The notes beneath the pieces are model-generated. The model made no database searches. It was not told the DNA's origin and was given only the letters and a program-made list of their open reading frames with translations. From Achromobacter sp. B7 (GTDB taxonomy: Bacteria > Pseudomonadota > Gammaproteobacteria > Burkholderiales > Burkholderiaceae_B), in contig NZ_CP032084.1 of the NCBI RefSeq assembly GCF_003600685.1, positions 248,001 to 312,000 on the forward strand: a stretch of 64,000 nt of DNA, in the 5' to 3' direction. Positions 526 through 64,000 of the stretch are shown here, in pieces. Each line of letters starts with the position of its first letter. Position 1 is the stretch's first letter. The position numbers and the translations under genes were made by a program.

Positions 526-1242
526 ATGATTCATCTGAATGGCGTCACTGACGAACCCTACGCCTTTGGCAGCCGGCAACCGCTGCTGGCCAACGCCACG
601 CTCGACATACCCGTCGGGCGCTACGCCCTGCTGTCGCATACGCCCGAGATGCACCGCCAGATTGTCGACGTGTTGTGCAACCTGCGGCCGCCGCGCCAGG
701 GCTTCGTCAAGCACGACGGCAATGTGTCGTGGGCGATTGGGCGGCAAGGTTTTATCCGGGGCAAGGCCAACGGGCTTTCCATCATCGACTTCGTCTGCGA
801 GATGTACGAAATCGATATCGAAGCCACGCACGAACTGGTCGCGGACCTGATCAGCGACCCCAAGGTGCTGGCCAAACCCATGGAACATTGGCCGCTTTAC
901 GCACGGCAGGAATTCTCGTTCGCCCTGGCGCTGGCGCCGGCGTTCGACGTTTACGTGATCGAAGGGGCCATCCCTTTCGAACCCTGCCGGTTCACCCGGC
1001 TCTGGCTGGCCCTGTTCGAAGAGCGGTTGATCGGCCGGACCCTCATTCTCTCTAGCTATCGCCAGAACCAGATGGCGGACTACTGCCTCAAAGGCTTGAT
1101 TTATGAACGAAGCGCTCTCAGCATCGAAGACGACCTCGACCAATGCCTCAGCAAATACCCCCCGCGACGATCTCGAAGCGACTCCGGCACCGGCGATGAC
1201 GTCTTCGGAGGCGGCTTCGAAGACAGCCAGCTCGGGATCTGA
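526..1242 (+). CDS. KpsT-like ABC exporter nucleotide-binding protein with degenerate ATPase motifs
   Basis: 238 aa. Position between the permease and KpsE-like gene, length, and several framework segments (GLSIIDFVCEMYEID, FSFALALAPAFDVYVI, the C-terminal YCLKGLIYE) match the KpsT/CtrD/BexA ATPase of capsule exporters. All catalytic motifs are altered. The Walker A position (about residues 35-46) reads LLSHTPEMHRQI with no GxxGxGK[ST]. The signature region is LYARQEFSFAL rather than a YSSGM-type motif. Walker B has E146-G147 where D-E is expected, and the H-loop His is Ser (SSYRQ). I infer a pseudo-ATPase, or one paired with an active ATPase encoded elsewhere. No frameshift or stop breaks the frame. 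The last 140 bases overlap the next gene, so the C-terminal ~45 residues are the least certain part. Confidence 0.75.
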   Translation: MIHLNGVTDEPYAFGSRQPLLANATLDIPVGRYALLSHTPEMHRQIVDVLCNLRPPRQGFVKHDGNVSWAIGRQGFIRGKANGLSIIDFVCEMYEIDIEATHELVADLISDPKVLAKPMEHWPLYARQEFSFALALAPAFDVYVIEGAIPFEPCRFTRLWLALFEERLIGRTLILSSYRQNQMADYCLKGLIYERSALSIEDDLDQCLSKYPPRRSRSDSGTGDDVFGGGFEDSQLGI

Positions 1243-2395
1243 GGGCGGCTCCGAAATCGAACGCCGCCGTCGCGAACGGCAGGCTGCGCTGCGCGAACGC
1301 CGGCGCCACCGCTGGATCAACGCGTTCATCGTCATCGCGCCGGTGGCGCTGGCGCTGGTCTATGTGCTGTGCGTCGCCACCCCGCGCTACGAAGCGGAAT
1401 CGCGCTTTTTCGTGCAGTCGGGCTCCGGCCAGCAAGGCGGCGGAGGGGGCGCGGCAAGCCTGCTGACCACGGGCAACATGGGCGGCATGCTGGGCGGCTT
1501 TGTCGACGGCTGGGCGGTCAGCGATTTCCTGAAATCGCGCGATGCCATGCAACAGCTGGACAAGAAGGTCGGCCTGCGCCAGTACCTGATCCACACGGGT
1601 ATCGACCCCTTCAACCACCTGGCCGAAGATTCCAGCGAAGACGACCTGTACCGCGCCTATCAGTCGGCGGTACACGTCTCGTTCAACGCCCTGGAGCAGA
1701 TCGACGTGCTGCGCGTCAGCGCGTTCTCGCCGGAAGACGCCGCGATGCTGTCCAAGGCGCTGATCGGCCTGGCCGAAGAATTCGTCAGCTCGATGAACGA
1801 GAAAGGCGTGGCCGACAAGCTGAAGGTCAGCGAAGAGTCGGTCAGGCTTGCCGAGCAAAAGGCGCTGGCCGCGCGCGAAGCCTTGACGGCGTGGCGCACC
1901 ACGCACGGCAACATCGACCCGACGGCCACGGTGGCCATGCTGTTGAACCTGTCCAGCCAGCTGGAAACCGAACTGAGCAGCGCGCAGATCAATCTGGACA
2001 AGATCCGCGCGTTGGAAAACAAGGACCACTTCATGCTCAAGCCCGCCCAGATGCAGGTGGTGGCATTGCAAAAGCGCATTGCGTCGGTGCGTCGTCGCCT
2101 CAGCGGCGACGGCAATGCCGAAGCCAAGCAGCTCAAGTCCTACGAGGCGCTGCGTAACACCCAGGCGTTCGCGGATTCCAACCTGACGCTGGCGCAGCAG
2201 TCGTACCAACAGGCGATGACGGACGCGCTGCGCTTGCAACGCTATCTGTCCATCATCGCGCAGCCGGTGCCCACGGACCGCCCCAGCAGCCCGCGTACCG
2301 CCATCCTGTTGCTGCAAGCGCTGGCGCTGGGCTTTGTGCTGATGTTTGTGTCGCGCGTGGCAATGGCATTGTTGCGGGGGCTGCGCCATGGTTGA
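1103..2395 (+). CDS. kpsE: Capsule export inner-membrane periplasmic adaptor (KpsE/CtrB/BexC family)
   Basis: 430 aa polysaccharide co-polymerase/adaptor that links the inner-membrane ABC exporter to the outer-membrane Wza/KpsD channel. Features: a low-complexity Ser/Thr/Ala-rich cytoplasmic tail (about residues 1-50), an Arg-rich stretch, TM1 near residues 70-92, the family motif PRYEAESRFFVQSG directly after TM1, a long periplasmic helical region, and TM2 at the C-terminus. Start chosen at 1103: AAAGG lies about 9 bases upstream, whereas the alternative ATG at 1196 has no ribosome binding site. The chosen start puts 140 bases inside the preceding gene in another frame. The stop overlaps the next start (ATGGTTGA). 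Confidence 0.85.
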   Translation: MNEALSASKTTSTNASANTPRDDLEATPAPAMTSSEAASKTASSGSEGGSEIERRRRERQAALRERRRHRWINAFIVIAPVALALVYVLCVATPRYEAESRFFVQSGSGQQGGGGGAASLLTTGNMGGMLGGFVDGWAVSDFLKSRDAMQQLDKKVGLRQYLIHTGIDPFNHLAEDSSEDDLYRAYQSAVHVSFNALEQIDVLRVSAFSPEDAAMLSKALIGLAEEFVSSMNEKGVADKLKVSEESVRLAEQKALAAREALTAWRTTHGNIDPTATVAMLLNLSSQLETELSSAQINLDKIRALENKDHFMLKPAQMQVVALQKRIASVRRRLSGDGNAEAKQLKSYEALRNTQAFADSNLTLAQQSYQQAMTDALRLQRYLSIIAQPVPTDRPSSPRTAILLLQALALGFVLMFVSRVAMALLRGLRHG

Positions 2396-4292
2396 TACCG
2401 CTGTTGAAGAACGCCGCGCCCAGGCCGACGCCACCACGCAGCTGCGCGAAGTCATCCGCGACATTCTGGCGGCCGACGAACCCGCCGGCCAGTTGGCAAG
2501 ACTGGGCCCGGCGCTGGCGAAGACGAACGAGGGCTGGCGCGATGTGCGCCGCCTGCTGGTCGCGCCCTGGATGCGCGAAGCGAAGCTCGCGCCCGCCATC
2601 GCCGCCCTGGAAACGCTGATTGCGGCGTACCCGGCCCGCGCCGATGACCGCCGCCTGCTGGCCAGCCTGCTGGGCCGCACCAAGCAGTGGGACCGCGCTA
2701 TTGCCGAGGTGGATGCCGCGGCCGGCATCGAGCCCGCCAACGCATCGCACCACGCCGCGCGCATCCAGTTGCGCGTGCAGGCTGGCCGCGTGACGGACGC
2801 CGCCGAGGTCGCACGCGCCACGGTGTCCATGGCGCGCGACGAGCCCGCCGAGGCGTATGCCTGGATGATGGCCTTTGCGCGTAATGGCGACACGGCCCAG
2901 GCCGCCGACATCGCCGCAAGCCTGGACCCCGCGCAGCTGCCGAATGAACGCGTGGCCACGATGGCCGTGCGCGCATTGCTGGAAGACGAGCGCGCCCAGG
3001 CGGCGATTGAACTGGGCGACCGGGCGCTGAACGCCGGCCACGACAGCCCCGCCTTGCGCGCGTCGTTGGGCATGGCGCATCTGCGGCGTGCGACTGAGGA
3101 TGACCGCAAGGTGCACGCGCTGACCCATTTTGAAACGGGCCTGGCCGCCGCGCCCACGGACGTGCGGCTGTTGACGCTGTACGGCGAAACCCTGCTGCGT
3201 GCCGGCCGCTACAAGGAGGCCGCGGCGCCGTTGGCGCAGGCCATTGAACTGGCGCCCGAGCTGGAGCAGACGCGTGCTTTGTATGCACGTGCGCTGCGCT
3301 ACACCTTGGAGTACGACAAGGCCGCCGAGCAGATGTTGAAGCTGGTCGAGAAGTCTCCCGACAAGCTGATCTGGCAGCGCTCGGCCATCGGCGCGCTGTC
3401 GCAGGCGGGCCGCAAGCAAGAGGCCGAGGCGCTGTACACGAAGTACGTCGCCACGCGCAGCGCACACCTGCCCAAGACCTTCCAGGACGCCATGGCGCAG
3501 ATGGAGCAGCGGCTGCACATGGCGCCGATTCCACAGGCGCGGCTGGATTGGGCGTGGTCGCTGCGCGGCGACGCCAATGCGGACCGCGCGGATTGGGAAC
3601 GCCGCGCGCGCTGGGGCCACATGATCGACCATCTGCTGTTCGACTGGCTGGAATGCCGCGAAGACGATGTCGAAGAGGCCATGCAGTTGCTGGGCGAACT
3701 GGATACCGGCGAGCGCTTTTTCGCGCCGTTGCTGGCGGCCGGCAAGGGCGTGGTGGTGGCGACCGCGCACGTCGGCCCCATGTATGCCGGGCTGATGGCG
3801 CTGGAGCTTCTGGGCATTCCGTCGCGCTGGCTCGCCACCGCGCCCACGGTGGCCCAAAGCAGCTATGCCACGGCCTTGATTTCCACCGCCGATCAAACCG
3901 AGGCGCAGGTGGCCAAAGCCTGCATGCGCGCCATCAACTCGGGCTTTGTGCTGTGCCTGGCCATCGACGGCGCGGCGAATCCCGCCGCGCCCCGCACCAC
4001 CTTCGAAGGTCAGGAGGTGACGTATTCCAGCTTTGCGTCGCACCTGGCGCATCGCATGGGCGTGCCGTCGGTGTTCTACGCGCCGCGTTGGGAAAACGGC
4101 CAGGTGACGTACACGCTGGCCATGCTGCCGGCGGCCAATCCCGGCGAAGACGCCGATGCCTACGCGCTGCGATGGCAGAAGGCGTATTTCGAACGGTTGC
4201 GCGAACACGTGGCCGGCCCCCCTGAAAATCTGCGCTTGAGCGGCGGCATCTGGCGTCATGTGCAGTCCGCGGATCGCTCCGCGCAGCAATAG
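2388..4292 (+). CDS. TPR-repeat protein with C-terminal LpxL/HtrB-like acyltransferase domain
   Basis: 634 aa. The N-terminal ~370 residues are Ala-rich helical pairs typical of TPR/Sel1-like repeats (for example around residues 265-290). Residues ~410-630 resemble the lipid A acyltransferase/LPLAT fold: AGKGVVVATAHVGPMYAG around 451-468 aligns with the HtrB/LpxL GKGVILLTGHFGNWE block, and AIDGAAN...FEGQEVTYSS with the D-x-x...FG block. His461 is present, but the acidic partner of HX4D/E is Tyr466, so classical catalysis is doubtful. It overlaps the KpsE-like stop by 8 bases, so it is translationally coupled to capsule export. I infer a role in capsule assembly or its lipid anchor; this is not shown. 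ATG 2388 chosen over upstream ATG 2346, which lies deep in the previous gene. Confidence 0.6.
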   Translation: MVDTAVEERRAQADATTQLREVIRDILAADEPAGQLARLGPALAKTNEGWRDVRRLLVAPWMREAKLAPAIAALETLIAAYPARADDRRLLASLLGRTKQWDRAIAEVDAAAGIEPANASHHAARIQLRVQAGRVTDAAEVARATVSMARDEPAEAYAWMMAFARNGDTAQAADIAASLDPAQLPNERVATMAVRALLEDERAQAAIELGDRALNAGHDSPALRASLGMAHLRRATEDDRKVHALTHFETGLAAAPTDVRLLTLYGETLLRAGRYKEAAAPLAQAIELAPELEQTRALYARALRYTLEYDKAAEQMLKLVEKSPDKLIWQRSAIGALSQAGRKQEAEALYTKYVATRSAHLPKTFQDAMAQMEQRLHMAPIPQARLDWAWSLRGDANADRADWERRARWGHMIDHLLFDWLECREDDVEEAMQLLGELDTGERFFAPLLAAGKGVVVATAHVGPMYAGLMALELLGIPSRWLATAPTVAQSSYATALISTADQTEAQVAKACMRAINSGFVLCLAIDGAANPAAPRTTFEGQEVTYSSFASHLAHRMGVPSVFYAPRWENGQVTYTLAMLPAANPGEDADAYALRWQKAYFERLREHVAGPPENLRLSGGIWRHVQSADRSAQQ

Positions 4293-4304
4293 GAACAAGC
4301 CTTG

Positions 4305-5513
4305 ATGAAGTCTGCAATGAAAACGATGCGTTGGCTGCTTGCCGTGGCCCTGCTGCAAGGCGGGGTGGCGGCCGCGAATGAAGCCTGCCCCAGCCCGGAC
4401 GAACACTGCCCGCTCGTTTCATCGCTGCTGTCTCAACGCGAAGGCTACGGCGCCAAGGCTACGGGCGGCCTGGGCGGCAAGTTCATCGAGGTGACGTCCG
4501 ACCAGGATTCGGGGCCGGGCACCTTGCGCGCCGCGCTGGCGCAAGCCAAGAAGGGGCCGACCTGGATCCGCTTCGCATCCGATATGACGATCGTGCTGGA
4601 CAAGCAGCTGCGCGTGCCCTCGAACGTGACGATCGACGGGCGCGGCAAGCGCGTTGCCTTGATCGACGACGGGCTGGGCGTGTACGGCGTGCAGAACGTC
4701 ATCCTGACGCACCTGACCATCGACGGCCGCCTGAACCGGCTGACGCAGGCCGTGAACGTGGCCAATGGCAGCCGCGATGTGTGGGTGGACCATATGGATC
4801 TGTCGCGCATGTCGGACCGGCTGCTGAACGTGAAGAACGGGTCCACCGACGTGACGATTTCATGGACCAAGTTCCATAACTCGAACAAGGTCATGCTGCT
4901 GAACAACATCACGTCCAAGAACCTGTTCCAGAACTACGAACGTGATTCGATCGCCCGCGTGACGCTGCATCACAACTATTTCTTCAACACCGTGCAGCGC
5001 AATCCGCGCGGGCAGTTCGGCACGTTCCACCTGTTCAACAACCTGCTTGAAGACTGGGATTTCTACGGCATGAGCTTCAGCCTGGAAGCCAAGGCGCTGG
5101 TCGAAGGCAACATCTTCAACAACACGGCGCAGCGCAAGTGCGTCGAGCCCGAATTCTTTCCCACGGTGGAAGGCGTCAACGTCAATTACTGCCACTACAT
5201 TCCCATTGCCGCCAAACGCAGCGCGCTGGACAACGGCGAGTCGGATCGCGGCGCGTACGAGAAACTGAAGTCGCAGCACGGCTACACGCGCGACTACAAA
5301 GCCTTCCTGCGCCTGAAAGACAACCTGTACCTGGGCGATGCCAAGCCGGTGTTGCAGGACTACCGACCCGATGCCGCGCCGACGCCGCCGTATTGTTACG
5401 GCTACGAGCACCCGACGCCGGAATTGGCAGACAAGATCCGCAAGTTTGCCGGCAACACCGGTGGCGATACGCCCCTGCCTGCATCAAGAACCGGCTCCGG
5501 CTGCGGCGGCTAG
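4305..5513 (+). CDS. Secreted pectate lyase-like polysaccharide lyase (PL1 family)
   Basis: 402 aa. N-terminal signal peptide (MRWLLAVALLQGGVAAA) followed by a parallel beta-helix of pectate lyase C type. Visible family motifs: NVTIDGRGKRV, the calcium-site segment DVWVDHMDLS, and QRNPRGQFG in the position of the RxPxxR catalytic region, then FHLFNNLLEDW. The start has AGGAAC about 10 bases upstream; a TTG three bases earlier is possible. It begins 12 bases after the acyltransferase-like gene and so is probably the last gene of the capsule operon. Lyases in export operons usually trim mis-exported polymer in the periplasm (as AlgL does for alginate), so the capsule may contain uronic acid. 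That inference is not proven; plant pectin use is an alternative. Confidence 0.8.
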   Translation: MKSAMKTMRWLLAVALLQGGVAAANEACPSPDEHCPLVSSLLSQREGYGAKATGGLGGKFIEVTSDQDSGPGTLRAALAQAKKGPTWIRFASDMTIVLDKQLRVPSNVTIDGRGKRVALIDDGLGVYGVQNVILTHLTIDGRLNRLTQAVNVANGSRDVWVDHMDLSRMSDRLLNVKNGSTDVTISWTKFHNSNKVMLLNNITSKNLFQNYERDSIARVTLHHNYFFNTVQRNPRGQFGTFHLFNNLLEDWDFYGMSFSLEAKALVEGNIFNNTAQRKCVEPEFFPTVEGVNVNYCHYIPIAAKRSALDNGESDRGAYEKLKSQHGYTRDYKAFLRLKDNLYLGDAKPVLQDYRPDAAPTPPYCYGYEHPTPELADKIRKFAGNTGGDTPLPASRTGSGCGG

Positions 5514-16739: not shown

Positions 16740-17417
16740 ATGTTGAACAAGGTCGTAAAGATGGGCGCGCTGGCCGTGTTGGCGGCGGCAATTTCCGGTT
16801 GCGCCACCGAGCGCTCGCAAGCGCTGGTGGTGCCGGCCACGCAGGCGGCGGCCAAGCCGTATCAAGGCGTGCGCAGCCCGATCTCGGTCGGTAAATTCGA
16901 TAACCGCACCAACTATCTGCGTGGCGTGTTCTCGGACGGCGTCGACCGTCTGGGCGGCCAGGCAAAGACGATCGTGGTCAGCCATCTTCAGCGCAGCGGT
17001 CGCTTCCAGGTCATGGACCGCGACAACCTCTCCGAAATCAAGCAGGAAGCCGGCTTCAACAAAAAGGCCAACCAGATCAAGGGCGCGCGCTATGTCGTGA
17101 CCGGCGACGTCACCGCGTTCGGCCGCAAGGTCACCGGCGACCAGCAGCTTTTCGGCATCCTGGGCCGTGGCAAGGAACAAGTGGCGTACGCCAAGGTGGA
17201 CCTGAACGTGGTCGACGTGACGACGTCCGAAGTGGTGTATTCGGCATCGGGCGCGGGCGAGTACAGCCTGTCGAACCGCGAAGTCATCGGCTTTGGCGGC
17301 ACCGCCAGCTACGACTCCACCCTGAACGGCAAGGTCCTGGACCTGGCCATCCGTGAGGCGGTGGACCGCCTGGTCGACGGCATCGAGCAAGGCGCCTGGC
17401 AGCCTTCCGCCAACTAA
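16740..17417 (+). CDS. CsgG/HfaB-family outer-membrane lipoprotein
   Basis: 225 aa. Lipoprotein signal peptide with ISGC lipobox (residues ~17-21), then the CsgG domain (SVGKFDNRTNYLRGVFSDG; YVVTGDVTAFG). In curli systems CsgG is the secretion pore. Here no csgA/B/E/F is present; instead a DUF4810 and a DUF799 lipoprotein follow, the same trio as the Neisseria NMB1124-1126/1162-1164 clusters. GGCAGGAGAAGAAG precedes the start. Function of the trio is unknown; an envelope or secretion complex is a reasonable inference. Confidence 0.88.
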   Translation: MLNKVVKMGALAVLAAAISGCATERSQALVVPATQAAAKPYQGVRSPISVGKFDNRTNYLRGVFSDGVDRLGGQAKTIVVSHLQRSGRFQVMDRDNLSEIKQEAGFNKKANQIKGARYVVTGDVTAFGRKVTGDQQLFGILGRGKEQVAYAKVDLNVVDVTTSEVVYSASGAGEYSLSNREVIGFGGTASYDSTLNGKVLDLAIREAVDRLVDGIEQGAWQPSAN

Positions 17418-17428
17418 GGAGACTTGCC

Positions 17429-17890
17429 ATGTTGAAACTACAGGCGATGCGTCGCCCGGATGCGCTTGCGCGCGCGGGGCGCGGTTTGGCGGTAGCCGCC
17501 GCGGTGGGTCTCTTGAGTGCATGCGTGCAGCAGCCCAAGTCGATGTACAGCTGGCAGGCCTATCAGCCGTCTGTCTATGCGTATCTGAAGGAAGACGGGT
17601 CGGATAACGCGGTGCAGGCTCAAGCCCTGGAAAAGAACATTGAAACCGCGCGTGCGGCCAATGTTGAGTTGCCGCCGGGCTTTCGCGCGCACCTGGGCAT
17701 GCTGTACCTGAAGATGGGTGACGGCGACAAGGGCGTGGAGCAACTGCAAAGCGAGAAGGTGGCTTTTCCGGAATCCACGCCGTTCATGGACTTCCTGATG
17801 CGCAACGTCGGCAAGCCCGCGGCGTCCGTTGACGCCACGTCCGCCACCCCGGCATCCGCCGATGCGGCAGCCTTGAAGAAGGGATCGTGA
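17429..17890 (+). CDS. DUF4810 lipoprotein
   Basis: 153 aa. N-terminal signal with LLSAC lipobox near residue 31, then YSWQAYQPSVYAYLKE, typical of DUF4810, and a TPR-like helical region (FRAHLGMLYLKMGDGDKGVEQL). The C-terminal ~20 residues are Ala/Ser/Thr-rich. AAGGAGA precedes ATG, which lies 11 bases after the CsgG-like stop. The stop overlaps the DUF799 start by one base (TGATG). Second member of the conserved trio; possibly a partner of the CsgG-like pore. Confidence 0.85.
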   Translation: MLKLQAMRRPDALARAGRGLAVAAAVGLLSACVQQPKSMYSWQAYQPSVYAYLKEDGSDNAVQAQALEKNIETARAANVELPPGFRAHLGMLYLKMGDGDKGVEQLQSEKVAFPESTPFMDFLMRNVGKPAASVDATSATPASADAAALKKGS

Positions 17891-18540
17891 TGATGACCCG
17901 CTTGTTCCGAATCGGCCTGTTGGCCGCCGTCGCCATGCTGGCCGGTTGCGTCGCGCCGCAGCAGCACGTGGACTACACCGCTTTTCGCGAAAGCAAGCCG
18001 GCGTCGATCCTGGTGCTGCCGCCGCTGAACACGTCCGTGGACGTGGCCGCCACGGCCGCCGTGCTGTCGCAGGCCACGCGGCCCCTGGCGGAATCGGGCT
18101 ACTACGTGATCCCGGTCGGTGTCATGGACGAAACCTTCAAGCAGAACGGCCTGAGCTCCCCGGACGAAATCCACGGGCTGCCCGGCGCCAAGCTGCGCGA
18201 GATCTTCGGCGCCGACGCGGCCTTGTACATGACGGTAAAGCAGTACGGCGCCAGCTATGCCGTAGTGTCCAGCAACGTCACGGTGGCCATCGATGCCGAA
18301 CTGATCGACCTGCGCAACGGCGCCAAGCTGTGGTCGGGCAGCAAGCAGGTGGTACAGGCCAGCAACAGCAGCGGCGGCCTGATCGGCATGCTGGTGCAGG
18401 CGATGGTGGACCAGATCGTCAACACGCTGTCGGATCGCAGCTATGGCGTGGCCGGCACGACCAACCACATGCTGCTCAGCGCGGGCCAGCCCGGCGGCAT
18501 CCTGTACGGGCCGCGCTCCCCGCGCTACGACACGCAGTAA
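17890..18540 (+). CDS. DUF799 lipoprotein (GNA1162 family)
   Basis: 216 aa. Signal peptide with MLAGC lipobox, then ASILVLPPLNTSVDV and YYVIPVGVMDETFKQNG, characteristic of DUF799, whose Neisseria member GNA1162 is a vaccine-candidate surface lipoprotein with a TolB/ABC-fold. ATG 17890 overlaps the preceding stop; GTG 17887 and ATG 17893 are alternatives. Last gene of the trio. Confidence 0.87.
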   Translation: MMTRLFRIGLLAAVAMLAGCVAPQQHVDYTAFRESKPASILVLPPLNTSVDVAATAAVLSQATRPLAESGYYVIPVGVMDETFKQNGLSSPDEIHGLPGAKLREIFGADAALYMTVKQYGASYAVVSSNVTVAIDAELIDLRNGAKLWSGSKQVVQASNSSGGLIGMLVQAMVDQIVNTLSDRSYGVAGTTNHMLLSAGQPGGILYGPRSPRYDTQ

Positions 18541-52784: not shown

Positions 52785-55130
52785 ATGGCAGTACGCGCTT
52801 GTCTTGGGCGGGGACGACGCATGTGGCGGCTTGCACTTTGCCTGCTGTGCGCGCCGGCAATGGCGGCGGACCCGCCCGACCAACTGGTGTCTTTCGGCAA
52901 TATCGCCGAGCGTGATGTGTATCTGGAGGTCAGTATCAACGGCGTCAATACGTCCCAATTGATTCGGTTTCGCGACGTGCAAGGCCGGCTGTCGGCCAGC
53001 GCGGGCGCCTTGCGGTCGGTGGGTGTGGACCTATCCACGCTGGGTCTGCCGGACGGCCGCGATATCGCGCTGGATAGCATTGCCGGCGTGCGCTACGCGT
53101 ACCGGACGGCAGAGCAATCGGTGGACATCCAGTTGCCCGACTCGTTGCGCGTGCCCTATGAAGTGGGCGCGGCCGGGGCCACGCAAACGCCGCCGGCCAC
53201 CTCCGGGCGCGGGCTGCTGCTGAACTACGACGCGTATGCGCAAACCGATTCGCTCTATCGGCTGGCGCTGTTTACCGAGCAGCGCTACTTCGATCCGCAC
53301 GGCCTGTTCAGCAATACGGGCACGGCGTATCTGGGCGGCGCGGCGGATCGCTACGTGCGCTATGACACCTTCTGGACGCGATCAGACCAGCAGACGATGC
53401 GCACGCTGCGGCTGGGCGACACCATCACGTCGTCGTTGAACTGGTCGCGTTCGGTGCGAATGGCCGGCGTGCAATGGGGCCGGAACTTCGCGCTGCGGCC
53501 CGACCTGGTGACGTTTCCCGTGTCGTCGTTGAGCGCATCGTCGGTGGTGCCCTCGTCCGTTGCGCTGTACGTCAATGGCGTCCAGCAGTTCTCCGGCAAC
53601 GTGCCGCCCGGGCCCTTTGTGGTGAACCAGATTCCGGGCATCACGGGCGCGGGCCAGGCCACGCTGATCACTCGCGACGCGCTGGGCCGCACGGTGACAA
53701 CCTCGGTGCCGCTGTATATCGATACGCGCATGCTGGCGTCCGGCCTGTCCAGCTGGTCGGTGGAAGCGGGCTTTGTGCGCCGCCAGTTCAGCGTGCGCTC
53801 GTTCGACTATGACGACAAACCCATGCTGACCTCGTCAGGGCGCTACGGGGTCAGCGACGACCTGACCGTGGAAGGGCACGCGGAAGCGGGCGCCGGCCTG
53901 GCCAACCTGGGCGCGGGCGCCTTGGTGAAGCTGGGGCAGGCGGGCGTGCTGAGCGGGTCCGTGTCGGGCAGCGCGGGCAGCTATTCCGGAGGCCAGATCG
54001 GCCTGGGGTACCAGTACGTGCGGCCAAGCTTCAGCATCGATATGCAGGCCACGCGCGCGCTGGGCGATTACGGCGACCTGGGTTCGCGCGAAGACGCGCC
54101 GGTGCCGCGCCAGACCGAACGCGTCACCGTGTCCCTGCCCCTGACCAGTGCGCAAAGCGTGGCGTTGAGCTACATCGGCTATCGCATGCCGCAGGTGCCG
54201 GCGGCAAAGCTCGGGTCGGTGTCGTACACGGTCAATCTGCACAGCCGGGTGGTGCTGACGGCCAGCGCCTACAACGATTTTGCCGAGGACGGTTCGCGCG
54301 GTGTCTACCTTGGCCTGTCGCTGATGCTGGGCGATCGTACGCAAGCCACCGCATCGGCAGGTCGGCAGGCCGGGCAGGACACCTACAGCGTGGGCGCGCA
54401 GAGCAGCGTGGCGTACGAAGGCGGCTGGGGGTGGGCGTTGCAGAACGGGCGGTCGGGCAGCATGCAATACAACCAGGGGCAGGCCCAGTTTCTGGGCCGC
54501 TACGGCCAGCTGACGGGCATCGTGCAGGACTATGGCGGCACGACGACGGCCGCAGCGCAGGCATCCGGGTCGCTGGCCATAATGGACGGCGCGGTGCTGC
54601 CGTCGCGCCGCATCAACGACAGCTTTGCGCTGGTCTCCACCGACGGCGAGCCCGATGTGGCGGTGCTGCACGAAAACAGAAAGTTGGGCAGGACGAACCG
54701 CAGCGGCTATCTGTTGGTGCCGGACTTGAATTCCTATCAGACCAATCGCCTGGCCATCGACCCGGAAGACCTGCCCGTGGACGTGAAGCTGGACACCACG
54801 AAGGCCGTGGTGGTGCCGCAGGCGGGCGCCGGGGTGCTGGCCAAGTTCCAGGTGGAAAAGTACGCGGCGGCCTCGGTCATCCTGCAATTGCCGAACGGCG
54901 CGCCGGTGCCCGTGGGCGCCCAAGTCGTGCAGGTGGAAAGCGGCAAGCGTTCCGTGGTGGGATACGACGGGATTGCGTTCGTGGAAGACCTTCAGGCCAG
55001 TAACCAGCTGCGGGTGCGTGGCGCAGGCGTATCTTGCCTGGTGGACTTCGATTACGTCCGCGACGAAGACCACCCGCTGCCCACGCTGGGGCCGTATCCG
55101 TGCCGGCCGCTGCAAGGAGCGCGGCCGTGA
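52785..55130 (+). CDS. Fimbrial outer-membrane usher protein (CsuD-like)
   Basis: 781 aa, shorter than classical ushers (~830-860) but normal for Csu-type. Signal peptide (residues ~1-28), N-terminal domain, 24-strand barrel with plug (GPFVVNQIPGITGAGQATLITRDALG is the conserved part of the barrel start), and C-terminal domains; YLLVPDLNSYQTNRLAIDPEDLP is an usher hallmark. AGGAAGG precedes ATG. Its stop overlaps the next start by one base. Confidence 0.93.
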   Translation: MAVRACLGRGRRMWRLALCLLCAPAMAADPPDQLVSFGNIAERDVYLEVSINGVNTSQLIRFRDVQGRLSASAGALRSVGVDLSTLGLPDGRDIALDSIAGVRYAYRTAEQSVDIQLPDSLRVPYEVGAAGATQTPPATSGRGLLLNYDAYAQTDSLYRLALFTEQRYFDPHGLFSNTGTAYLGGAADRYVRYDTFWTRSDQQTMRTLRLGDTITSSLNWSRSVRMAGVQWGRNFALRPDLVTFPVSSLSASSVVPSSVALYVNGVQQFSGNVPPGPFVVNQIPGITGAGQATLITRDALGRTVTTSVPLYIDTRMLASGLSSWSVEAGFVRRQFSVRSFDYDDKPMLTSSGRYGVSDDLTVEGHAEAGAGLANLGAGALVKLGQAGVLSGSVSGSAGSYSGGQIGLGYQYVRPSFSIDMQATRALGDYGDLGSREDAPVPRQTERVTVSLPLTSAQSVALSYIGYRMPQVPAAKLGSVSYTVNLHSRVVLTASAYNDFAEDGSRGVYLGLSLMLGDRTQATASAGRQAGQDTYSVGAQSSVAYEGGWGWALQNGRSGSMQYNQGQAQFLGRYGQLTGIVQDYGGTTTAAAQASGSLAIMDGAVLPSRRINDSFALVSTDGEPDVAVLHENRKLGRTNRSGYLLVPDLNSYQTNRLAIDPEDLPVDVKLDTTKAVVVPQAGAGVLAKFQVEKYAAASVILQLPNGAPVPVGAQVVQVESGKRSVVGYDGIAFVEDLQASNQLRVRGAGVSCLVDFDYVRDEDHPLPTLGPYPCRPLQGARP

Positions 55131-56167
55131 TGGCGCGGCGGCGCGGCATGGGGCCGACGCAGGGGGCGGCGCGGTTGCCGCTGCGCTGGCTGTTGTTGTC
55201 CGCCAGCGCGGCGTTGGCCATGGCCTATGGCAGCTTGGCGCAGGCCAGTTCCTGCACGTTGGGCGCGGGCACGACATCGACGATGGATTTCGGCGCGGTC
55301 AACCCGCTGCTGCCGGCCGATACCGTCAACGATAGTGGGCAGGTCACGGTGACCTGCACCTTTACCGCGCTGGGCCTGTTTGCGCGCGTGTGCTTCAACC
55401 TGGGCCTGGGCAATACCAGTACGTCAAACAACCCGCGTACCTTGGGGGCCGGCACGAACCGGATGAACTACAACCTGTACACCAACACCGCGCGCACGCA
55501 GGTGTGGGGCGCTTCGACCAGTTCCGGCCCGACATCGGTATTGCTGACCGGGCCGCTGTTGGTTCTGGGCGGGCCGGTGTCGACCACGTTCAAGTTCTAC
55601 GGCAAGGTGCCGGGCAACCAGCCGCTGGTCTCGACGGTCAATAACGCCAACACGACGTATTCCGAAACCTACCCCAGCACGGCTACGGTCGACGTGTTGT
55701 TCGGCCTGGGCGCGTTGGGCAATTGCCCGTTGTCCACGGTCACGCAGCGCATCTCCATTCCGTTGACCGTGACGGCGCAGGTACAGAAAAATTGCACGAT
55801 CAACGCGACGGATCTGGCGTTTCCGCCCAAGGGGGTGTTGAGCACAGCGGCCACGGCCACCAGCGCCATCACCGTCAAGTGCACCAACAACAACGCATTT
55901 TCGATCGCGCTGAACGGCGGTTCGGTAGCGGGCAACGTGCTGGCGCGCAAGATGAAGCACGCGACGGCGGCCGACACGGTCAGCTACCAGCTTTATCAGG
56001 ACAGCAGCTACGCCACGATCTGGGGCGACGCGTCGGGCGGCGCCCCGCGCGTGGGCACCGGCACGGGCGCCAACCAAACGTTCACGGTGTACGGCCGGGT
56101 GCCTCCCCAGCCTACTCCCCGGCCGGGTAATTACAAGGACGTTGTCACCGCCACCATCACGTTCTGA
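55130..56167 (+). CDS. Two-domain SCPU pilus protein (CsuE-like tip adhesin candidate)
   Basis: 345 aa. Signal peptide (~residues 18-38), then two SCPU-like domains: N-terminal ~40-185 (SSCTLGAGTTSTMDFGAVN) and C-terminal ~200-345 (VQKNCTINATDLAF; VKCTNNNAFSIAL), the latter similar to the 51505 pilin and ending with a strand-like YKDVVTATITF. Two-domain SCPU proteins such as CsuE are tip adhesins. AAGGAG upstream; start overlaps the usher stop. Last gene of the operon. Confidence 0.85.
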   Translation: MARRRGMGPTQGAARLPLRWLLLSASAALAMAYGSLAQASSCTLGAGTTSTMDFGAVNPLLPADTVNDSGQVTVTCTFTALGLFARVCFNLGLGNTSTSNNPRTLGAGTNRMNYNLYTNTARTQVWGASTSSGPTSVLLTGPLLVLGGPVSTTFKFYGKVPGNQPLVSTVNNANTTYSETYPSTATVDVLFGLGALGNCPLSTVTQRISIPLTVTAQVQKNCTINATDLAFPPKGVLSTAATATSAITVKCTNNNAFSIALNGGSVAGNVLARKMKHATAADTVSYQLYQDSSYATIWGDASGGAPRVGTGTGANQTFTVYGRVPPQPTPRPGNYKDVVTATITF

Positions 56168-60188: not shown

Positions 60189-60506
60189 CTTTGCGAGGCG
60201 GCCGGCGAATGGCGGCGTTGCAGGGCGCATTGCGGCACGGCTTGACCGCGCCGTCGAGAGCGCGGTGGTGTGACCGTGGCGCCGGGATAACTTTTAGTGA
60301 CGCATGAAAGGCTGCTGTTTCCGGGTTTTCCCGGGGATATCGAGTACGCTGCCCGGGGTCCGGTTGCCGGCCCTCTTTTCTTGGATCTCGGGCTGCCTGC
60401 TTGCCGCCGGGGCCGGCTTCTGCCTGCTACCGGCTATCTGCTGTGCGTGTGTACTGTGCGCTGTCTGCTGTCTGCTATGCGCTTTGTACTGCGTGCTTTG
60501 TACTGC

Positions 60507-60548
60507 GTACTGCTTGCTGCGTACTGCTTGCTGCGTACTGCTTGCTGC
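60507..60548. repeat. 14-bp tandem repeat (3 exact copies)
   Basis: GTACTGCTTGCTGC at 60507-60520, 60521-60534 and 60535-60548, preceded by degenerate copies from about 60450. It ends 41 bases before the DUF2809 start, so copy-number change could alter the leader or promoter spacing. Confidence 0.9.
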
Positions 60549-60589
60549 GTGCCCGTGCTTGTTACTAGCTTCTAACTGCTTCTTCTCCC

Positions 60590-61021
60590 ATGACCCTGAC
60601 TTTCAACGGGCGCGCGTTCGCCGCCCTGCTTGCCGTTACCGCGCTGCTGGCGCTGATCGCCTTGTATGGCGCGCCGTACCCGTTCCTGCGCGGGTTCCTG
60701 GGCGATGTGATCGCGGTGGGCTGGGCCTACCTGGTGTACCGCACGTTCATCCGCGCGCAGGTCTTGCCGCTGGCGATTGCGGCGCTAGTGACGGGGTATG
60801 CGGTGGAATTCGCTCAGTACCTGGCGCGGCTGTACGGCTGGCAGTTGCAGCAGCCGGTCTTGCGGGTCGTGCTGGGCAGTGTGCCCGACTGGTGGGACGT
60901 GCTGGCCTATACCGTGGGCTTCGTCGTGGTGTTGCTGCTGGCGGGCGCTAACCAGCGCCGCCAACACGCCGCGTCGCTACAGGACGCGCGCCTGCGTGCA
61001 AGCTTGCGCGCGCGCCGCTAG
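60590..61021 (+). CDS. DUF2809 membrane protein
   Basis: 143 aa, four TM helices. The DUF2809 family features are YGAPYPFLRGFLGDVIAVGWAYLVYRTF and VTGYAVEFAQYLARLYGW, and SVPDWWDVLAYTVGF (residues quoted in shorter pieces: SVPDWWDVLAY). The C-terminus is basic (ASLQDARLRASLRARR). Function unknown; relatives include VanZ-like small membrane proteins. The ATG lies directly after a pyrimidine-rich repeat tract and lacks a good ribosome site. Confidence 0.85.
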   Translation: MTLTFNGRAFAALLAVTALLALIALYGAPYPFLRGFLGDVIAVGWAYLVYRTFIRAQVLPLAIAALVTGYAVEFAQYLARLYGWQLQQPVLRVVLGSVPDWWDVLAYTVGFVVVLLLAGANQRRQHAASLQDARLRASLRARR

Positions 61022-61590: not shown

Positions 61591-62322
61591 ATGGCAGAAC
61601 TGATGAACCGAGATGAATTCCGTACCGCGTTGGAAAACGCGATCAAGGGCAAGAGCGCCAACGCGTCGCCCTTTTCCATTGCCTGGGCCGAAGGCAAGCT
61701 CAGCCGCGAGCACCTGTCGCGCTGGGCCGAGAACCACTATCACTATGTCGGTCCGTTCGCGGATTACCTGGGATACCTCTACGCTCGTACGCCCGATACC
61801 TACACCGAAGCCAAAGACTTCCTGCTGGCCAATATGTACGAAGAGGAAATCGGTGGCGACCGCCATACCGATCTGCTGATTCGTTTTGCCGAAGCCTGCG
61901 GCACCACGCGCGAACGCGTCACCAACCCGGACAACATGTCGCCCACCACGCGGGCGCTGCAAAGCTGGTGTTATGCCGTGGCCATGCGTGAAGACCCCAT
62001 CGTGGCCGTCGCCGGGCTGGTCGTGGGCCTGGAATCCCAGGTGCCGTCCATCTATCGCAAGCAGACGCCGACGCTGCGCGAAAAGTACGGCTTCACCGAT
62101 GAAGAAGTGGAGTTCTTCGACCTGCACATCGTGTCGGACGAGATCCACGGCGAACGCGGCTATCAGATCGTGCTGGAACACGCCAACACGGTCGAGCTTC
62201 AGCAGCGCTGCCTGAAAATCTGCGAAATCGGCGCCCAGATGCGTTTGCTGTACACCACGGCGCTGTACACCGACTACGTGCAGCACGAGATCAAGCTGCC
62301 CGAACTCGGTCTGGCCGCCTGA
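61591..62322 (+). CDS. Haem-oxygenase-like diiron oxidase (HDO; TenA/PqqC/CADD-like)
   Basis: 243 aa, all-helical TenA/PqqC/CADD fold. All six metal ligands of CADD-type diiron enzymes can be placed with matching spacing: Glu85 and His92 (EEEIGGDRH), Glu148 (GLESQVP), His179, Asp183 and His186 (LHIVSDEIH). PqqC and TenA lack this set. Chlamydia CADD and Nitrosomonas NE1434 make p-aminobenzoate from their own tyrosine, with a nearby Lys; here Tyr50/Tyr52 and Lys157 are candidate counterparts. Other HDO members are oxygenases (UndA, SznF, BesC). Two ferredoxins follow, suggesting an external electron source. ATG 61591 has GGAG 6 bases upstream; the frame extends upstream through non-conserved sequence. 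Confidence 0.85.
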   Translation: MAELMNRDEFRTALENAIKGKSANASPFSIAWAEGKLSREHLSRWAENHYHYVGPFADYLGYLYARTPDTYTEAKDFLLANMYEEEIGGDRHTDLLIRFAEACGTTRERVTNPDNMSPTTRALQSWCYAVAMREDPIVAVAGLVVGLESQVPSIYRKQTPTLREKYGFTDEEVEFFDLHIVSDEIHGERGYQIVLEHANTVELQQRCLKICEIGAQMRLLYTTALYTDYVQHEIKLPELGLAA

Positions 62323-62341
62323 TTCACACCCGGCATTTATC

Positions 62342-62369
62342 GGGGCGCGCTGCATCGCTGGCGCGCCCC
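62342..62369 (+). terminator. Hairpin between HDO and first ferredoxin genes
   Basis: GGGGCGCGC (62342-62350), 10-base loop, GCGCGCCCC (62361-62369), a perfect 9-bp stem 19 bases after the HDO stop and 27 before the ferredoxin start. No T tract. It may set relative expression of the HDO and its electron carriers rather than separate the genes. Confidence 0.4.
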
Positions 62370-62395
62370 ACCCGCAGCTCCAGGACGACAGACTC

Positions 62396-62695
62396 ATGCC
62401 TACCGTTGTATTTCATAAAGGCGGCCAGACCTATACCGATGTGGTCAAGGACAACACCAACCTGGTGGTGCGGGCCGGCATCAAGCAGTTTCCGTATCCG
62501 CATCTGCGCTACGAATGCGGCATGGGCAAGTGCGCCAAGTGCGCGTGCCGAGTGCTGGCCGGCGCCGAACATCTTCCCCCGGTGAACTGGAAGGAAAAGA
62601 AGCAACTGGGCGACCGCATCGACCAGGGCTACCGGCTGGCGTGCCAGCTGTGGCTGAACCATGATGTTGAACTGGTTCAGGACGCGGAGGCATAA
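62396..62695 (+). CDS. Plant-type [2Fe-2S] ferredoxin 1
   Basis: 99 aa. Cluster cysteines C41-x4-C46-x2-C49...C83 (YECGMGKCAKC and RLACQLW) in a beta-grasp domain; an additional Cys51. ATG has AGGA about 11 bases upstream. Presumed one-electron donor to the diiron oxidase just upstream. No ferredoxin reductase is present here. Confidence 0.92.
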   Translation: MPTVVFHKGGQTYTDVVKDNTNLVVRAGIKQFPYPHLRYECGMGKCAKCACRVLAGAEHLPPVNWKEKKQLGDRIDQGYRLACQLWLNHDVELVQDAEA

Positions 62696-62699
62696 CGCG

Positions 62700-63026
62700 A
62701 TGGACGCCTCCTACGTGATCCTGACGACCAAGCCCGGCGTGTTCCACACAGACGTGGGCGTCGACGTCGACATCATCGAAACCTACGACTACGTCTTCTA
62801 CGGGCGCACGCTTGCCGTGTTTCGCATTGCCCGGCTGCACGGCGAGACGCGCCTGATCGTCACTGAAGACACGCCGCCTTACGTCGTCAACCGCGTGCCG
62901 TCCAAGTTCCTTGAAAAATTCTCGTCGGTCGAGGCAGCCCGCAAGGAACTGGCGCACCTGACGCGATTCGGCAGCATGGAATCCACCTTGACGCTGCGGC
63001 CCGCCGCCGCTGTTGCAGAGCATTGA
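62700..63026 (+). CDS. Unknown 108-aa protein between two ferredoxins
   Basis: 108 aa, no TM, signal or Cys cluster. Begins MDASYVILTTKPGVFHTDVG, followed by ETYDYVFYGRTLAVFRIARL and TEDTPPYVVNRVPSKFLEKF. The alternating hydrophobic pattern suggests a beta-rich fold with one helix near residues 75-95. Family not recognised. It starts 4 bases after ferredoxin 1 (with GGAGG upstream) and ends 5 bases before ferredoxin 2, so it is clearly cotranscribed and probably a component of the same redox system. Confidence 0.8.
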   Translation: MDASYVILTTKPGVFHTDVGVDVDIIETYDYVFYGRTLAVFRIARLHGETRLIVTEDTPPYVVNRVPSKFLEKFSSVEAARKELAHLTRFGSMESTLTLRPAAAVAEH

Positions 63027-63031
63027 CACCC

Positions 63032-63382
63032 ATGGTTCAGATCACATTTCTTTCCAATGGCGGCAAGGTTGCCACCGCGCCCGAGAACAGCAACCTGCTG
63101 CGCGTGTCGCTCAAGGAAAAGGGCGGCATTCCGTTCAAGTGCGGGGGCGGCTTGTGCGGCACCTGCAAGTGCCGCATCGAAGAGGGGCTGGAGAACACCG
63201 ACGCGGTCAAGCCGAAAGAGCGCAAGCATCTGCGCCCTGAGGACTTTGAAGCCGGCTACCGCATGGCGTGCCAGACATTTGTGAACGGCGACGTCAAAGT
63301 TTCGTGGGTGGTGCAGAACGGCAAGGGGGTGGTGGTGGGCGTGGGCGCGGACCCGGTCGACGCGCCGGTGCCCTCCGCCTGA
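63032..63382 (+). CDS. Plant-type [2Fe-2S] ferredoxin 2
   Basis: 116 aa. C37-x4-C42-x2-C45...C80 (FKCGGGLCGTC and RMACQTF), with an extra Cys47, like ferredoxin 1. The first cluster loop is the Gly-rich KCGGGLCGTC form; the C-terminus has a Val/Gly/Pro-rich extension. ATG 63032 chosen; a TTG 9 bases earlier is possible. Two different ferredoxins in one operon suggest distinct partners or an electron relay. Confidence 0.92.
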   Translation: MVQITFLSNGGKVATAPENSNLLRVSLKEKGGIPFKCGGGLCGTCKCRIEEGLENTDAVKPKERKHLRPEDFEAGYRMACQTFVNGDVKVSWVVQNGKGVVVGVGADPVDAPVPSA

Positions 63383-63478: not shown

Positions 63479-64000
63479 TCAATCCGCCGCGTCGTGGTGC
63501 TGTTGTTGCTGCTGCGTGTCCGTGTATGCCTTGGCCGCGTTGTGCACGTGCTGGCTCGCCAGCAAGGCGGCCAGGTCGCCGTTGCCGGCAATCACGGCAT
63601 TCAGAATCTGCGAATGCTCATCCCAGTTGGCCTTGGCGCGGTGCATGTTGCTGGGCGCGAACAGCAGCGCCGTGCGATCGCGCAGCGACCGCATCAAATC
63701 CGTCAGCACCACATTGCCGCCTATGGTGGCCAGCATTTCGTGAAACTGCGAATTCAGCGCCAGGAACTTGTCCAGCTGTTCACTGCGCGCGGCTTCCGTG
63801 CCTTCGCGCAGAAAGGCCTGCAAGCGTTCCACCGTCTTGGCATCGCGCCGCTGTGCCGCCAGCTTGGCATTGAGCCCCTCCAGCGTGGCGCGCACTTCCA
63901 CCATGTCATAGGCCACGGCGTCCGACAGCACGGATACCGAGGCGCCGCGACGCGGCTCGATGGTGACCAGCCCTTCGGCGGCCAAGGCGCGCAAGGCTTC
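63479..64000 (-). CDS. GntR-family regulator, FCD subfamily (5' end beyond window)
   Basis: 173 codons visible; the start and most of the HTH lie beyond base 64000. The frame enters at EALRALAAEGLVTIEPRRGASV, the end of a GntR wing, followed by an FCD domain (AYDMVEVRATLEGLNAKLAAQR; FLALNSQFHEMLATIGGN; HRAKANWDEHSQILNAVIAGN with the metal-binding His/Asp positions). C-terminus has a short poly-Gln run before HHDAAD. Convergent with the HDO-ferredoxin operon; ligand unknown but a carboxylate is usual for FCD. A role as regulator of this operon is inferred. Confidence 0.88.
   Translation of the reverse strand, partial: EALRALAAEGLVTIEPRRGASVSVLSDAVAYDMVEVRATLEGLNAKLAAQRRDAKTVERLQAFLREGTEAARSEQLDKFLALNSQFHEMLATIGGNVVLTDLMRSLRDRTALLFAPSNMHRAKANWDEHSQILNAVIAGNGDLAALLASQHVHNAAKAYTDTQQQQQHHDAAD

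What the first reader, a model, noticed from the sequence alone, without database searches (positions are those of the whole stretch)
61591..63382. HDO diiron protein with two ferredoxins and an unknown protein: candidate new oxidase system
Seen: four tightly spaced genes: a TenA/PqqC/CADD-fold protein with a full diiron ligand set (Glu85, His92, Glu148, His179, Asp183, His186, spacings as in CADD), two plant-type ferredoxins, and a 108-aa protein of unknown family between them. Known: HDO enzymes include CADD/NE1434 (p-aminobenzoate from an internal Tyr) and several oxygenases. Inference: the ferredoxins feed electrons to the diiron site and the unknown protein is an effector or substrate-handling subunit. 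This gene set is not a described system that I can name.
Basis: partly seen in the sequence, partly recalled or inferred. Interest (0 to 1): 0.78.

Follow-up and report, generated by a model that had tools for sequence, protein, structure and literature searches.

The report
Multi-part HDO diiron oxygenase operon
A bacterium carries a conserved gene set that pairs an unusual two-iron oxygen-using enzyme with two small electron-carrier proteins, an unknown partner protein and, just outside the window, a matching reductase and breakdown-type enzymes, which points to a multi-part oxygenase of a kind I found no description of for this enzyme family.

Summary
61591-62322 encodes an HDO-family (heme oxygenase-like diiron oxidase) protein with the full 3His/3carboxylate ligand set; 62396-62695 and 63032-63382 are plant-type [2Fe-2S] ferredoxins; 62700-63026 (X108) has no Pfam, NCBIfam or PDB relative but is under purifying selection. 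In 268 genomes of the family, a close HDO (76), X108 (76) and the first ferredoxin (77) occur in the same genomes; 75 have both HDO and X108. In 79 named loci found by X108 (of 152 hits), the order ferredoxin-X108-ferredoxin is kept in 78 and the HDO is present in 76; the other 3 are cut by contig ends. X108 reads as one frame with the second ferredoxin in two genera. The window cuts the locus short: beyond it, and near the set in most of the 79 loci, lie a GntR/FCD regulator, permeases, an aldehyde dehydrogenase, an HbpS-like protein and a BenC-type NAD(P)H/FAD/[2Fe-2S] reductase. Best reading: a catabolic, multicomponent HDO oxygenase. CADD-like p-aminobenzoate synthesis is rejected: both sacrificial residues are absent and the genome has pabB. 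Substrate, reaction and X108's role are unproven.

The parts
61591..62322 (+). HDO (heme oxygenase-like diiron oxidase) protein, 243 aa; ligands E85, H92, E148, H179, D183, H186
   Evidence: Pfam Haem_oxygenas_2 134.1 bits; PDB 4-aminobenzoate synthases and CADD 1rcw, E 6e-18 to 1.1e-17; ligand alignment; conservation
62396..62695 (+). FdA, plant-type [2Fe-2S] ferredoxin, 99 aa
   Evidence: Pfam Fer2 34.9 bits; four Cys conserved in 34 representative loci; in 77 of 268 family genomes, the union of the HDO and X108 genomes
62700..63026 (+). X108, 108-aa protein of unknown family, no cysteine; predicted seven strands and one helix (mean pLDDT 86.8)
   Evidence: no Pfam/NCBIfam match, no credible Pfam match in 33 members, no credible PDB relative alone or as profile; alignment of 33 members; model; dN/dS median 0.147
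63032..63382 (+). FdB, plant-type [2Fe-2S] ferredoxin, 116 aa; one frame with X108 in loci L052, L125, L130
   Evidence: Pfam Fer2 48.7 bits; four Cys conserved in 22 representative loci; fused frames
63479..64000 (-). GntR/FCD transcriptional regulator, convergent, cut by the window's end (full gene in L032)
   Evidence: Pfam FCD and GntR plus FCD on the longer frame in L032; a homologue in 73 of 79 named loci

Best explanation
The four genes are the catalytic and electron-transfer core of a multicomponent HDO oxygenase inside a catabolic operon. Proposed working: a permease (the 510-aa membrane protein and/or the TauE/SafE-type permease) brings in a small organic substrate; NAD(P)H gives electrons to the BenC-type Fer2-FAD-NAD reductase encoded downstream; these pass through FdA and FdB to the diiron centre of the HDO; the reduced centre activates O2 and oxidises the substrate (hydroxylation, desaturation or C-N/C-C cleavage); the product, probably an aldehyde or a precursor of one, is oxidised by the aldehyde dehydrogenase; the GntR/FCD protein controls expression. 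X108 has no cysteine and is most likely a redox-silent accessory that works with FdB, for docking or gating. Shown: the genes, ligand set, cluster motifs, co-occurrence, gene order, shared frames and nearby partners. Inferred: the direction of electron flow, oxygenase activity, catabolic role, X108's role. The substrate is unknown; a weak lead (about one in four) is an amino-acid-derived amide or gamma-glutamyl-type compound, from the GGT-family hydrolase, OCD-family and peptide-type ABC genes in part of the loci.
For: Co-occurrence over the same 268 genomes: HDO at 83% identity or more in 76, X108 (E 1e-19 or better) in 76, both in 75; FdA in 77, exactly the union; overlap probability 1e-64 by hypergeometric test, uncorrected for kinship. 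The same 16 genera carry HDO and X108. In the phylum sample of 299 genomes the three with a close HDO are the same three with X108. In plasmid records the 6 with a close HDO are the 6 with X108. In two genomes the HDO lies away from the FdA-X108-FdB genes, 65 kb in G221 and 3.5 Mb on the contig in G107 (about 0.5 Mb if circular), yet both are kept. Of 79 named loci (up to 9 kb each side): FdA and FdB 79, contiguous FdA-X108-FdB 78, HDO 76; homologues of HbpS 74, GntR 73, ALDH 62, 510-aa protein 60, TauE 55, reductase 55, OCD 30, GGT 17. Reductase domains Fer2-FAD_binding_6-NAD_binding_1, best NCBIfam BenC, 210 bits, under its cut-off 430. X108 and FdB in one frame in Pseudorhodoferax (L125, L130) and genome G153 (L052). 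HDO and X108 trees both join Bordetella sp. 02P26C-1 and genomosp. 2 with Comamonas, not with other Bordetella (supports 97/91 and 99/98). Precedent: MboA with MboB, an NAD(P)H/flavin/[2Fe-2S] reductase (PMC13185094, passages).
Against: No biochemistry. No reductase homologue was found in 24 of 79 loci, among them the Acetobacteraceae-type loci, though some loci are cut by contig ends; electrons there must come from elsewhere. X108 was not found in G262, a 100% complete genome with HDO, FdA, FdB, HbpS, the 510-aa protein and GGT, so it is not strictly needed. Distance correlation between HDO and X108 is low (Spearman 0.12; X108-FdB 0.47). A 46%-identical HDO (G690) sits beside HbpS and GntR homologues and a Rieske-domain gene; no ferredoxin like FdA or FdB in the 19 kb read and no X108 in the genome, so these ferredoxins are not universal HDO partners. 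Known HDOs are mostly biosynthetic, and the review PMC13108848 says those studied need no protein effector (passage).
Confidence: 0.6

Rival explanations
1. A CADD/NePabS-like self-sacrificing p-aminobenzoate synthase, with the ferredoxins as reductant.
For: Closest solved relatives are CADD and two 4-aminobenzoate synthases; the metal ligands align.
Against: Sacrificial Tyr27 is Ser29 and amino-donor Lys152 is Gln158 (the two residues are named in PMC11965152, passages); Ser29 and Gln158 are in the at-least-95% set of 32 loci, the neighbouring Lys157 is not. TIGR04305 (CADD family) 100.1 bits against cut-off 200. Own genome has pabB over its cut-off (371.8 against 328.4). None of the common neighbours that were identified is a folate gene.
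Confidence: 0.03
2. The HDO makes a small signalling or defence metabolite (biosynthetic cluster), like MboA, PolF or FlcD.
For: Characterised HDOs are described as acting in natural product biosynthesis (PMC13108848, abstract, passages); MboA/MboB is the nearest precedent for an HDO with a reductase.
Against: The commonest neighbours identified are permeases, an aldehyde dehydrogenase and an FCD regulator, and in part GGT, OCD, alpha/beta hydrolase or GMC dehydrogenase; no ligase or synthetase was seen among the clusters that I identified in the 79 loci, but the rarer clusters were not all identified. Spread over 16 genera of one family as a stable set.
Confidence: 0.15
3. FdA, X108 and FdB form an electron module for a different enzyme (a dehydrogenase or a Rieske oxygenase elsewhere), and the HDO is only co-regulated with it.
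For: HDO and X108 distances correlate weakly (0.12); in G107 and G221 the HDO lies far from the module; in 7 of 76 loci HDO and FdA are more than 400 bases apart.
Against: 75 of 77 genomes with HDO or X108 have both; FdA was not found without one of them in 268 genomes; of the oxidoreductases identified none is as constant in the 79 loci (HDO 76, ALDH 62, reductase 55). NAD-type aldehyde dehydrogenases need no ferredoxin (general knowledge).
Confidence: 0.15
4. The HDO-fold protein is not an oxygenase but a metal store, sensor or cofactor-free PqqC-like oxidase.
For: The fold also carries PqqC and TenA (general knowledge; Pfam TENA_THI-4 match).
Against: All six dimetal ligands kept in at least 95% of 32 loci; PqqC model 53 bits against 240, TenA 12.8 against 130; a reductase and ferredoxins fit a redox enzyme.
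Confidence: 0.05

Closest known systems
MboA/MboB (mangotoxin HDO with its reductase; PMC13185094)
   Same: HDO with a dedicated NAD(P)H, flavin, [2Fe-2S] reductase, which the authors say may be the first characterised dedicated HDO-redox partner pair (passages).
   Different: There a biosynthetic acetylenase with one reductase, which gates the second step; here two extra ferredoxins, X108 and a catabolic-type neighbourhood. MboA's sequence was not compared here.
CADD / NePabS p-aminobenzoate synthases
   Same: Closest solved relatives by sequence; same six ligands and spacing.
   Different: Sacrificial Tyr and Lys absent; score under the family cut-off; different neighbourhood.
Bacterial multicomponent (ferritin-like) diiron monooxygenases
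   Same: Working logic: ferredoxin, diiron oxygenase and a small catalytic effector (PMC4200526, abstract start in the listing), plus a reductase (general knowledge).
   Different: Oxygenase belongs to the heme-oxygenase-like family, not the ferritin-like one; X108 has no Pfam relation to MmoB/DmpM-type effectors. Convergent at most.
PqqC and TenA
   Same: Pfam TENA_THI-4 (TENA/THI-4/PQQC family) match, 46.4 bits over cut-off 22.
   Different: Far below both equivalog cut-offs; carries the dimetal ligand set.
BenC/AntC reductases
   Same: Same domain order Fer2, FAD, NAD in the downstream reductase.
   Different: 210 bits against BenC's cut-off 430; no Rieske oxygenase was seen among the common neighbours that I identified, though one lies near the set in L060.

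Membership tests
HDO superfamily (heme oxygenase-like dimetal oxidases) | 3His/3carboxylate ligand set in CADD-like spacing | tested here: met
   E85, H92, E148, H179, D183, H186 align to the 1rcw ligand positions (positions recalled); at least 95% conserved in 32 loci
HDO superfamily (heme oxygenase-like dimetal oxidases) | sequence family of the fold | tested here: met
   Pfam Haem_oxygenas_2 134.1 bits, cut-off 28.9. The fold itself was not modelled
HDO superfamily (heme oxygenase-like dimetal oxidases) | bound Fe/Fe or Fe/Mn and O2 activation | not testable with these tools
   needs purified protein
CADD/NePabS pABA synthase | sacrificial Tyr (CADD Tyr27) | tested here: not met
   Ser29
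CADD/NePabS pABA synthase | amino-donor Lys (CADD Lys152) | tested here: not met
   Gln158
CADD/NePabS pABA synthase | TIGR04305 cut-off | tested here: not met
   100.1 against 200 bits
PqqC | TIGR02111 cut-off | tested here: not met
   53 against 240 bits
Plant-type [2Fe-2S] ferredoxin (FdA, FdB) | Fer2 domain with four cluster cysteines | tested here: met
   Pfam over cut-off for both; cysteines conserved
Plant-type [2Fe-2S] ferredoxin (FdA, FdB) | TIGR02008 (fdx_plant) cut-off | tested here: not met
   18.7 and 29.2 against 81.15 bits: Fer2 proteins, but not of that subfamily
Three-component diiron monooxygenase (ferritin-like) | MmoB/DmpM-type effector | tested here: not met
   no such Pfam match in 33 members of X108
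Three-component diiron monooxygenase (ferritin-like) | Fer2-FAD-NAD reductase in the operon | tested here: met
   L032:7973-8989; a homologue in 55 of 79 loci
HDO with dedicated redox partner (MboAB type) | turnover that depends on the partner | not testable with these tools
   genomic association only

The most novel reading that the evidence does not exclude
This is the first multicomponent HDO: a catabolic oxygenase with its own reductase, two ferredoxins in relay and a protein effector (X108) that gates O2 activation, an independent re-invention, on the heme-oxygenase-like fold, of the component logic of the ferritin-like bacterial multicomponent monooxygenases.
Probability: 0.3. Interest if true: 0.8.

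Novelty: new variant of a known kind. Interest (0 to 1): 0.62.

Why it matters
The 2026 review PMC13108848 states that HDOs studied to date need no protein effector (passage), and PMC13185094 says that MboAB may be the first characterised dedicated HDO-redox partner pair (passage). A widespread, highly conserved HDO (83% identity or more over 16 genera of one family) with its own reductase, two ferredoxins and a conserved unknown partner would extend HDO chemistry to catabolism and make the question of the natural electron donors of HDOs directly testable. It would also give meaning to genes now annotated 'iron-containing redox enzyme' and 'hypothetical protein'.

Tried and rejected
CADD-like role: rejected on two residues, cut-off and pabB. 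Known relatives for X108: none credible in Pfam (33 members), NCBIfam (window member) or PDB (single and profile). The model of the 510-aa membrane protein (mean pLDDT 78.8, all helical) was not compared either. Substrate from that protein: 1 of 25 members touches DUF969 at E 1.3e-4, and the own-genome DUF969 search found nothing at E 1; too weak. Distance correlations: computed, no help to the HDO-X108 link. Literature: nine searches ran. I saw the listed titles and abstract starts only, and four of the lists were cut (20 of 209, 20 of 110, 15 of 33, 25 of 277); in what was listed I saw no paper on this gene set or on a catabolic HDO with ferredoxins. Only open-licence PMC papers are covered. 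I opened four papers, as passages only (PMC13108848, PMC11965152, PMC13185094, PMC13232832).
Full report
What is there. The first encodes a 243-aa protein of Pfam family Haem_oxygenas_2. In the PDB its best sequence relatives are two 4-aminobenzoate synthases and CADD, E 6e-18 to 1.1e-17. Residues E85, H92, E148, H179, D183 and H186 align to the six CADD ligand positions (the positions are recalled) and stay at 95% or more in 32 representative loci, mostly of different genera. Two Fer2 ferredoxins follow, with X108 between them. X108 has no match in Pfam or NCBIfam, no credible Pfam match in any of 33 members (best E 0.03) and no credible PDB relative (best E 1.3 alone, 0.97 as profile). The window's X108 has no cysteine; K11, Y31, A39, N64, L87 and G91 are invariant in 33 members. 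AlphaFold2 gives it mean pLDDT 86.8: seven strands and one helix. All four genes are under purifying selection inside the genus, HDO most (dN/dS 0.012), X108 least (0.147), 41 loci from 39 genomes each. The genus is Achromobacter by inference: contigs of same-genus genomes have the lengths of named Achromobacter contigs (for example G022:C4 and L081, both 738616 bases).

The set is real. In the same 268 genomes of the window's family, a close HDO (83% identity or more) is in 76, X108 in 76, FdA in 77. HDO and X108 share 75 genomes and the same 16 genera. The exceptions are G203 (X108 and FdA, no close HDO; 72% complete) and G262 (HDO, FdA, FdB, no X108; 100% complete). In 299 genomes sampled over the phylum, the close HDO and X108 are in the same 3, the window's own among them; in 274 sampled over the class, X108 is only in the window's own genome. 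In plasmid records, the 6 with HDO at 88.9% or more are the 6 with X108; the other 10 HDO matches are about 25% identical and annotated as PqqC. Of 152 X108 hits in named genomes 79 loci were returned, 27 of them Achromobacter, the rest from beta- and alphaproteobacteria such as Bordetella, Cupriavidus, Comamonas, Variovorax, Hydrogenophaga, Bradyrhizobium, Roseomonas and Azospirillum. FdA and FdB are in all 79, in the order FdA-X108-FdB on one strand in 78. HDO is in 76; in the other 3 FdA begins within 251 bases of the locus start, at a contig end. HDO lies within 400 bases of FdA in 69 of 76 (53 same strand, 16 divergent). X108 presence is by construction in these loci; the partners' presence is not.

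The set is larger than the window shows. Downstream of the window (L032 = G000:C1:309000-325000) follow the GntR/FCD regulator (minus strand), a TauE/SafE-type permease (minus), a 510-aa membrane protein without Pfam match, an aldehyde dehydrogenase (NCBIfam best: alpha-ketoglutaric semialdehyde dehydrogenase, 533.7 bits, under its cut-off 770), an HbpS-like protein and a Fer2-FAD-NAD reductase. Homologues in the 79 loci, up to 9 kb each side: HbpS-like 74, GntR 73, ALDH 62, 510-aa protein 60, TauE 55, reductase 55, OCD/mu-crystallin 30, GGT-family 17 (which labels each frame once, gives 73, 73, 62, 60, 55, 57, 30, 17). These are matches by sequence score, not proven orthologues; some ALDH and regulator matches are weak. 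Azospirillum canadense (L156) has HDO-FdA-X108-FdB-ALDH-HbpS-reductase in a row; a Caballeronia plasmid adds an alpha/beta hydrolase, an OCD gene, an MFS gene and a porin. Partial loci add a choline-dehydrogenase-like GMC enzyme (Bradyrhizobium), a glutathione-transferase-like gene, and a peptide-type ABC permease (Mangrovicoccus type).

Links between parts. X108 and FdB are one uninterrupted frame in G153 (L052) and in two Pseudorhodoferax (L125, L130); FdB and an alpha/beta hydrolase are one frame in L150. A sequencing error that hides a stop was not excluded. In trees of HDO and of X108, two Bordetella (02P26C-1, genomosp. 2) group with Comamonas with good support (97/91 and 99/98) while three other Bordetella group with Achromobacter, so the two genes seem to have moved together. 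Against this, pairwise distances of HDO and X108 correlate poorly (0.12), X108 and FdB better (0.47); long X108 branches make this weak either way.

How it probably works. The reductase is of the type that hands electrons from NAD(P)H through FAD to a [2Fe-2S] centre (domain composition; function from knowledge of the BenC class). With FdA and FdB it makes a complete chain to the diiron HDO. The products are then handled by an aldehyde dehydrogenase. A GntR/FCD regulator and permeases fit substrate breakdown. X108, redox-silent and in one frame with FdB at times, fits a docking or gating partner; this is inference. The order 510-aa protein-GGT-HDO-ALDH-HbpS-reductase in L079 and L105 puts a hydrolase at the start in some lineages; its reading frame in L079 shows no obvious export signal (by eye). 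I therefore favour, at low confidence, an amide-type or gamma-glutamyl-type substrate.

Compared with what is known. The HDO review PMC13108848 (passages) says HDOs studied so far need no protein effector, unlike ferritin-like oxygenases. PMC13185094 (passages) says MboA with its flavin/[2Fe-2S] reductase MboB may be the first characterised dedicated HDO-redox partner pair. The present set goes further: reductase, two ferredoxins, accessory protein, catabolic setting. It is a member of the HDO superfamily by the tests made, not of the CADD, PqqC or TenA families, and it may work like, but is not, a ferritin-like multicomponent monooxygenase. PMC13232832 (passages) describes another HDO-domain protein, DtpC, in desiccation tolerance; so an HDO outside a known biosynthetic cluster is not itself without precedent.

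Limits. No chemistry was tested. No reductase homologue was found in 24 of 79 loci, some of them cut by contig ends. The 46% HDO of G690 keeps HbpS and GntR neighbours but no FdA- or FdB-like gene in the 19 kb read and no X108 in the genome, and has a Rieske-domain gene upstream, so HDO-HbpS may be the older pair. The fold comparisons of X108 and of the 510-aa protein could not be run, and the HDO was not modelled.

Noticed in passing
L052:1543-2187; L125:8383-9594; L130:8695-9594: X108 and FdB read as one uninterrupted frame in G153 and two Pseudorhodoferax genomes.
   Followed up: yes
L150:9295-10647: FdB and an alpha/beta hydrolase (HGGAF / GHSAGG type) read as one frame in a Burkholderiales MAG; a related hydrolase gene adjoins FdB in a Caballeronia plasmid (L078).
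   Followed up: partly
L032:4253-5785 (just downstream of the window): 510-aa all-helical membrane protein with no Pfam match, with a homologue in 60 of 79 loci; one of 25 members touches DUF969. Possibly an undescribed transporter family.
   Followed up: partly
L032:7481-7960 and L169:9804-10988: An HbpS-like (haem/iron-binding family) gene is nearly as constant (74 of 79) as the HDO and also flanks the distant 46% HDO of G690; its role beside a diiron enzyme is unexplained.
   Followed up: partly
L170 (G262:C1:742000-759000): Compact version of the locus without X108: GntR, FdB, FdA, HDO, HbpS, 510-aa protein, GGT.
   Followed up: yes
G200:C4:2144659-2144951: FdA match is split over two frames, a broken gene or a sequencing error.
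   Followed up: no
window 60473-60552: Short tandem array (14-base unit CTGCGTACTGCTTG, 3.4 copies at 100%, inside a looser 21/28-base array) upstream of the DUF2809 gene at 60590.
   Followed up: no
window 1103-5513: Wzz-like (weak, under cut-off), TPR and pectate-lyase-like genes in a row, possibly a polysaccharide export or processing cluster.
   Followed up: no
window 16740-18540: CsgG-like gene followed by two small genes with lipoprotein-like starts (CsgG by Pfam; the starts by eye).
   Followed up: no
window 52785-56167: Fimbrial usher gene (PapC type) followed by an open frame at 55034-56167.
   Followed up: no
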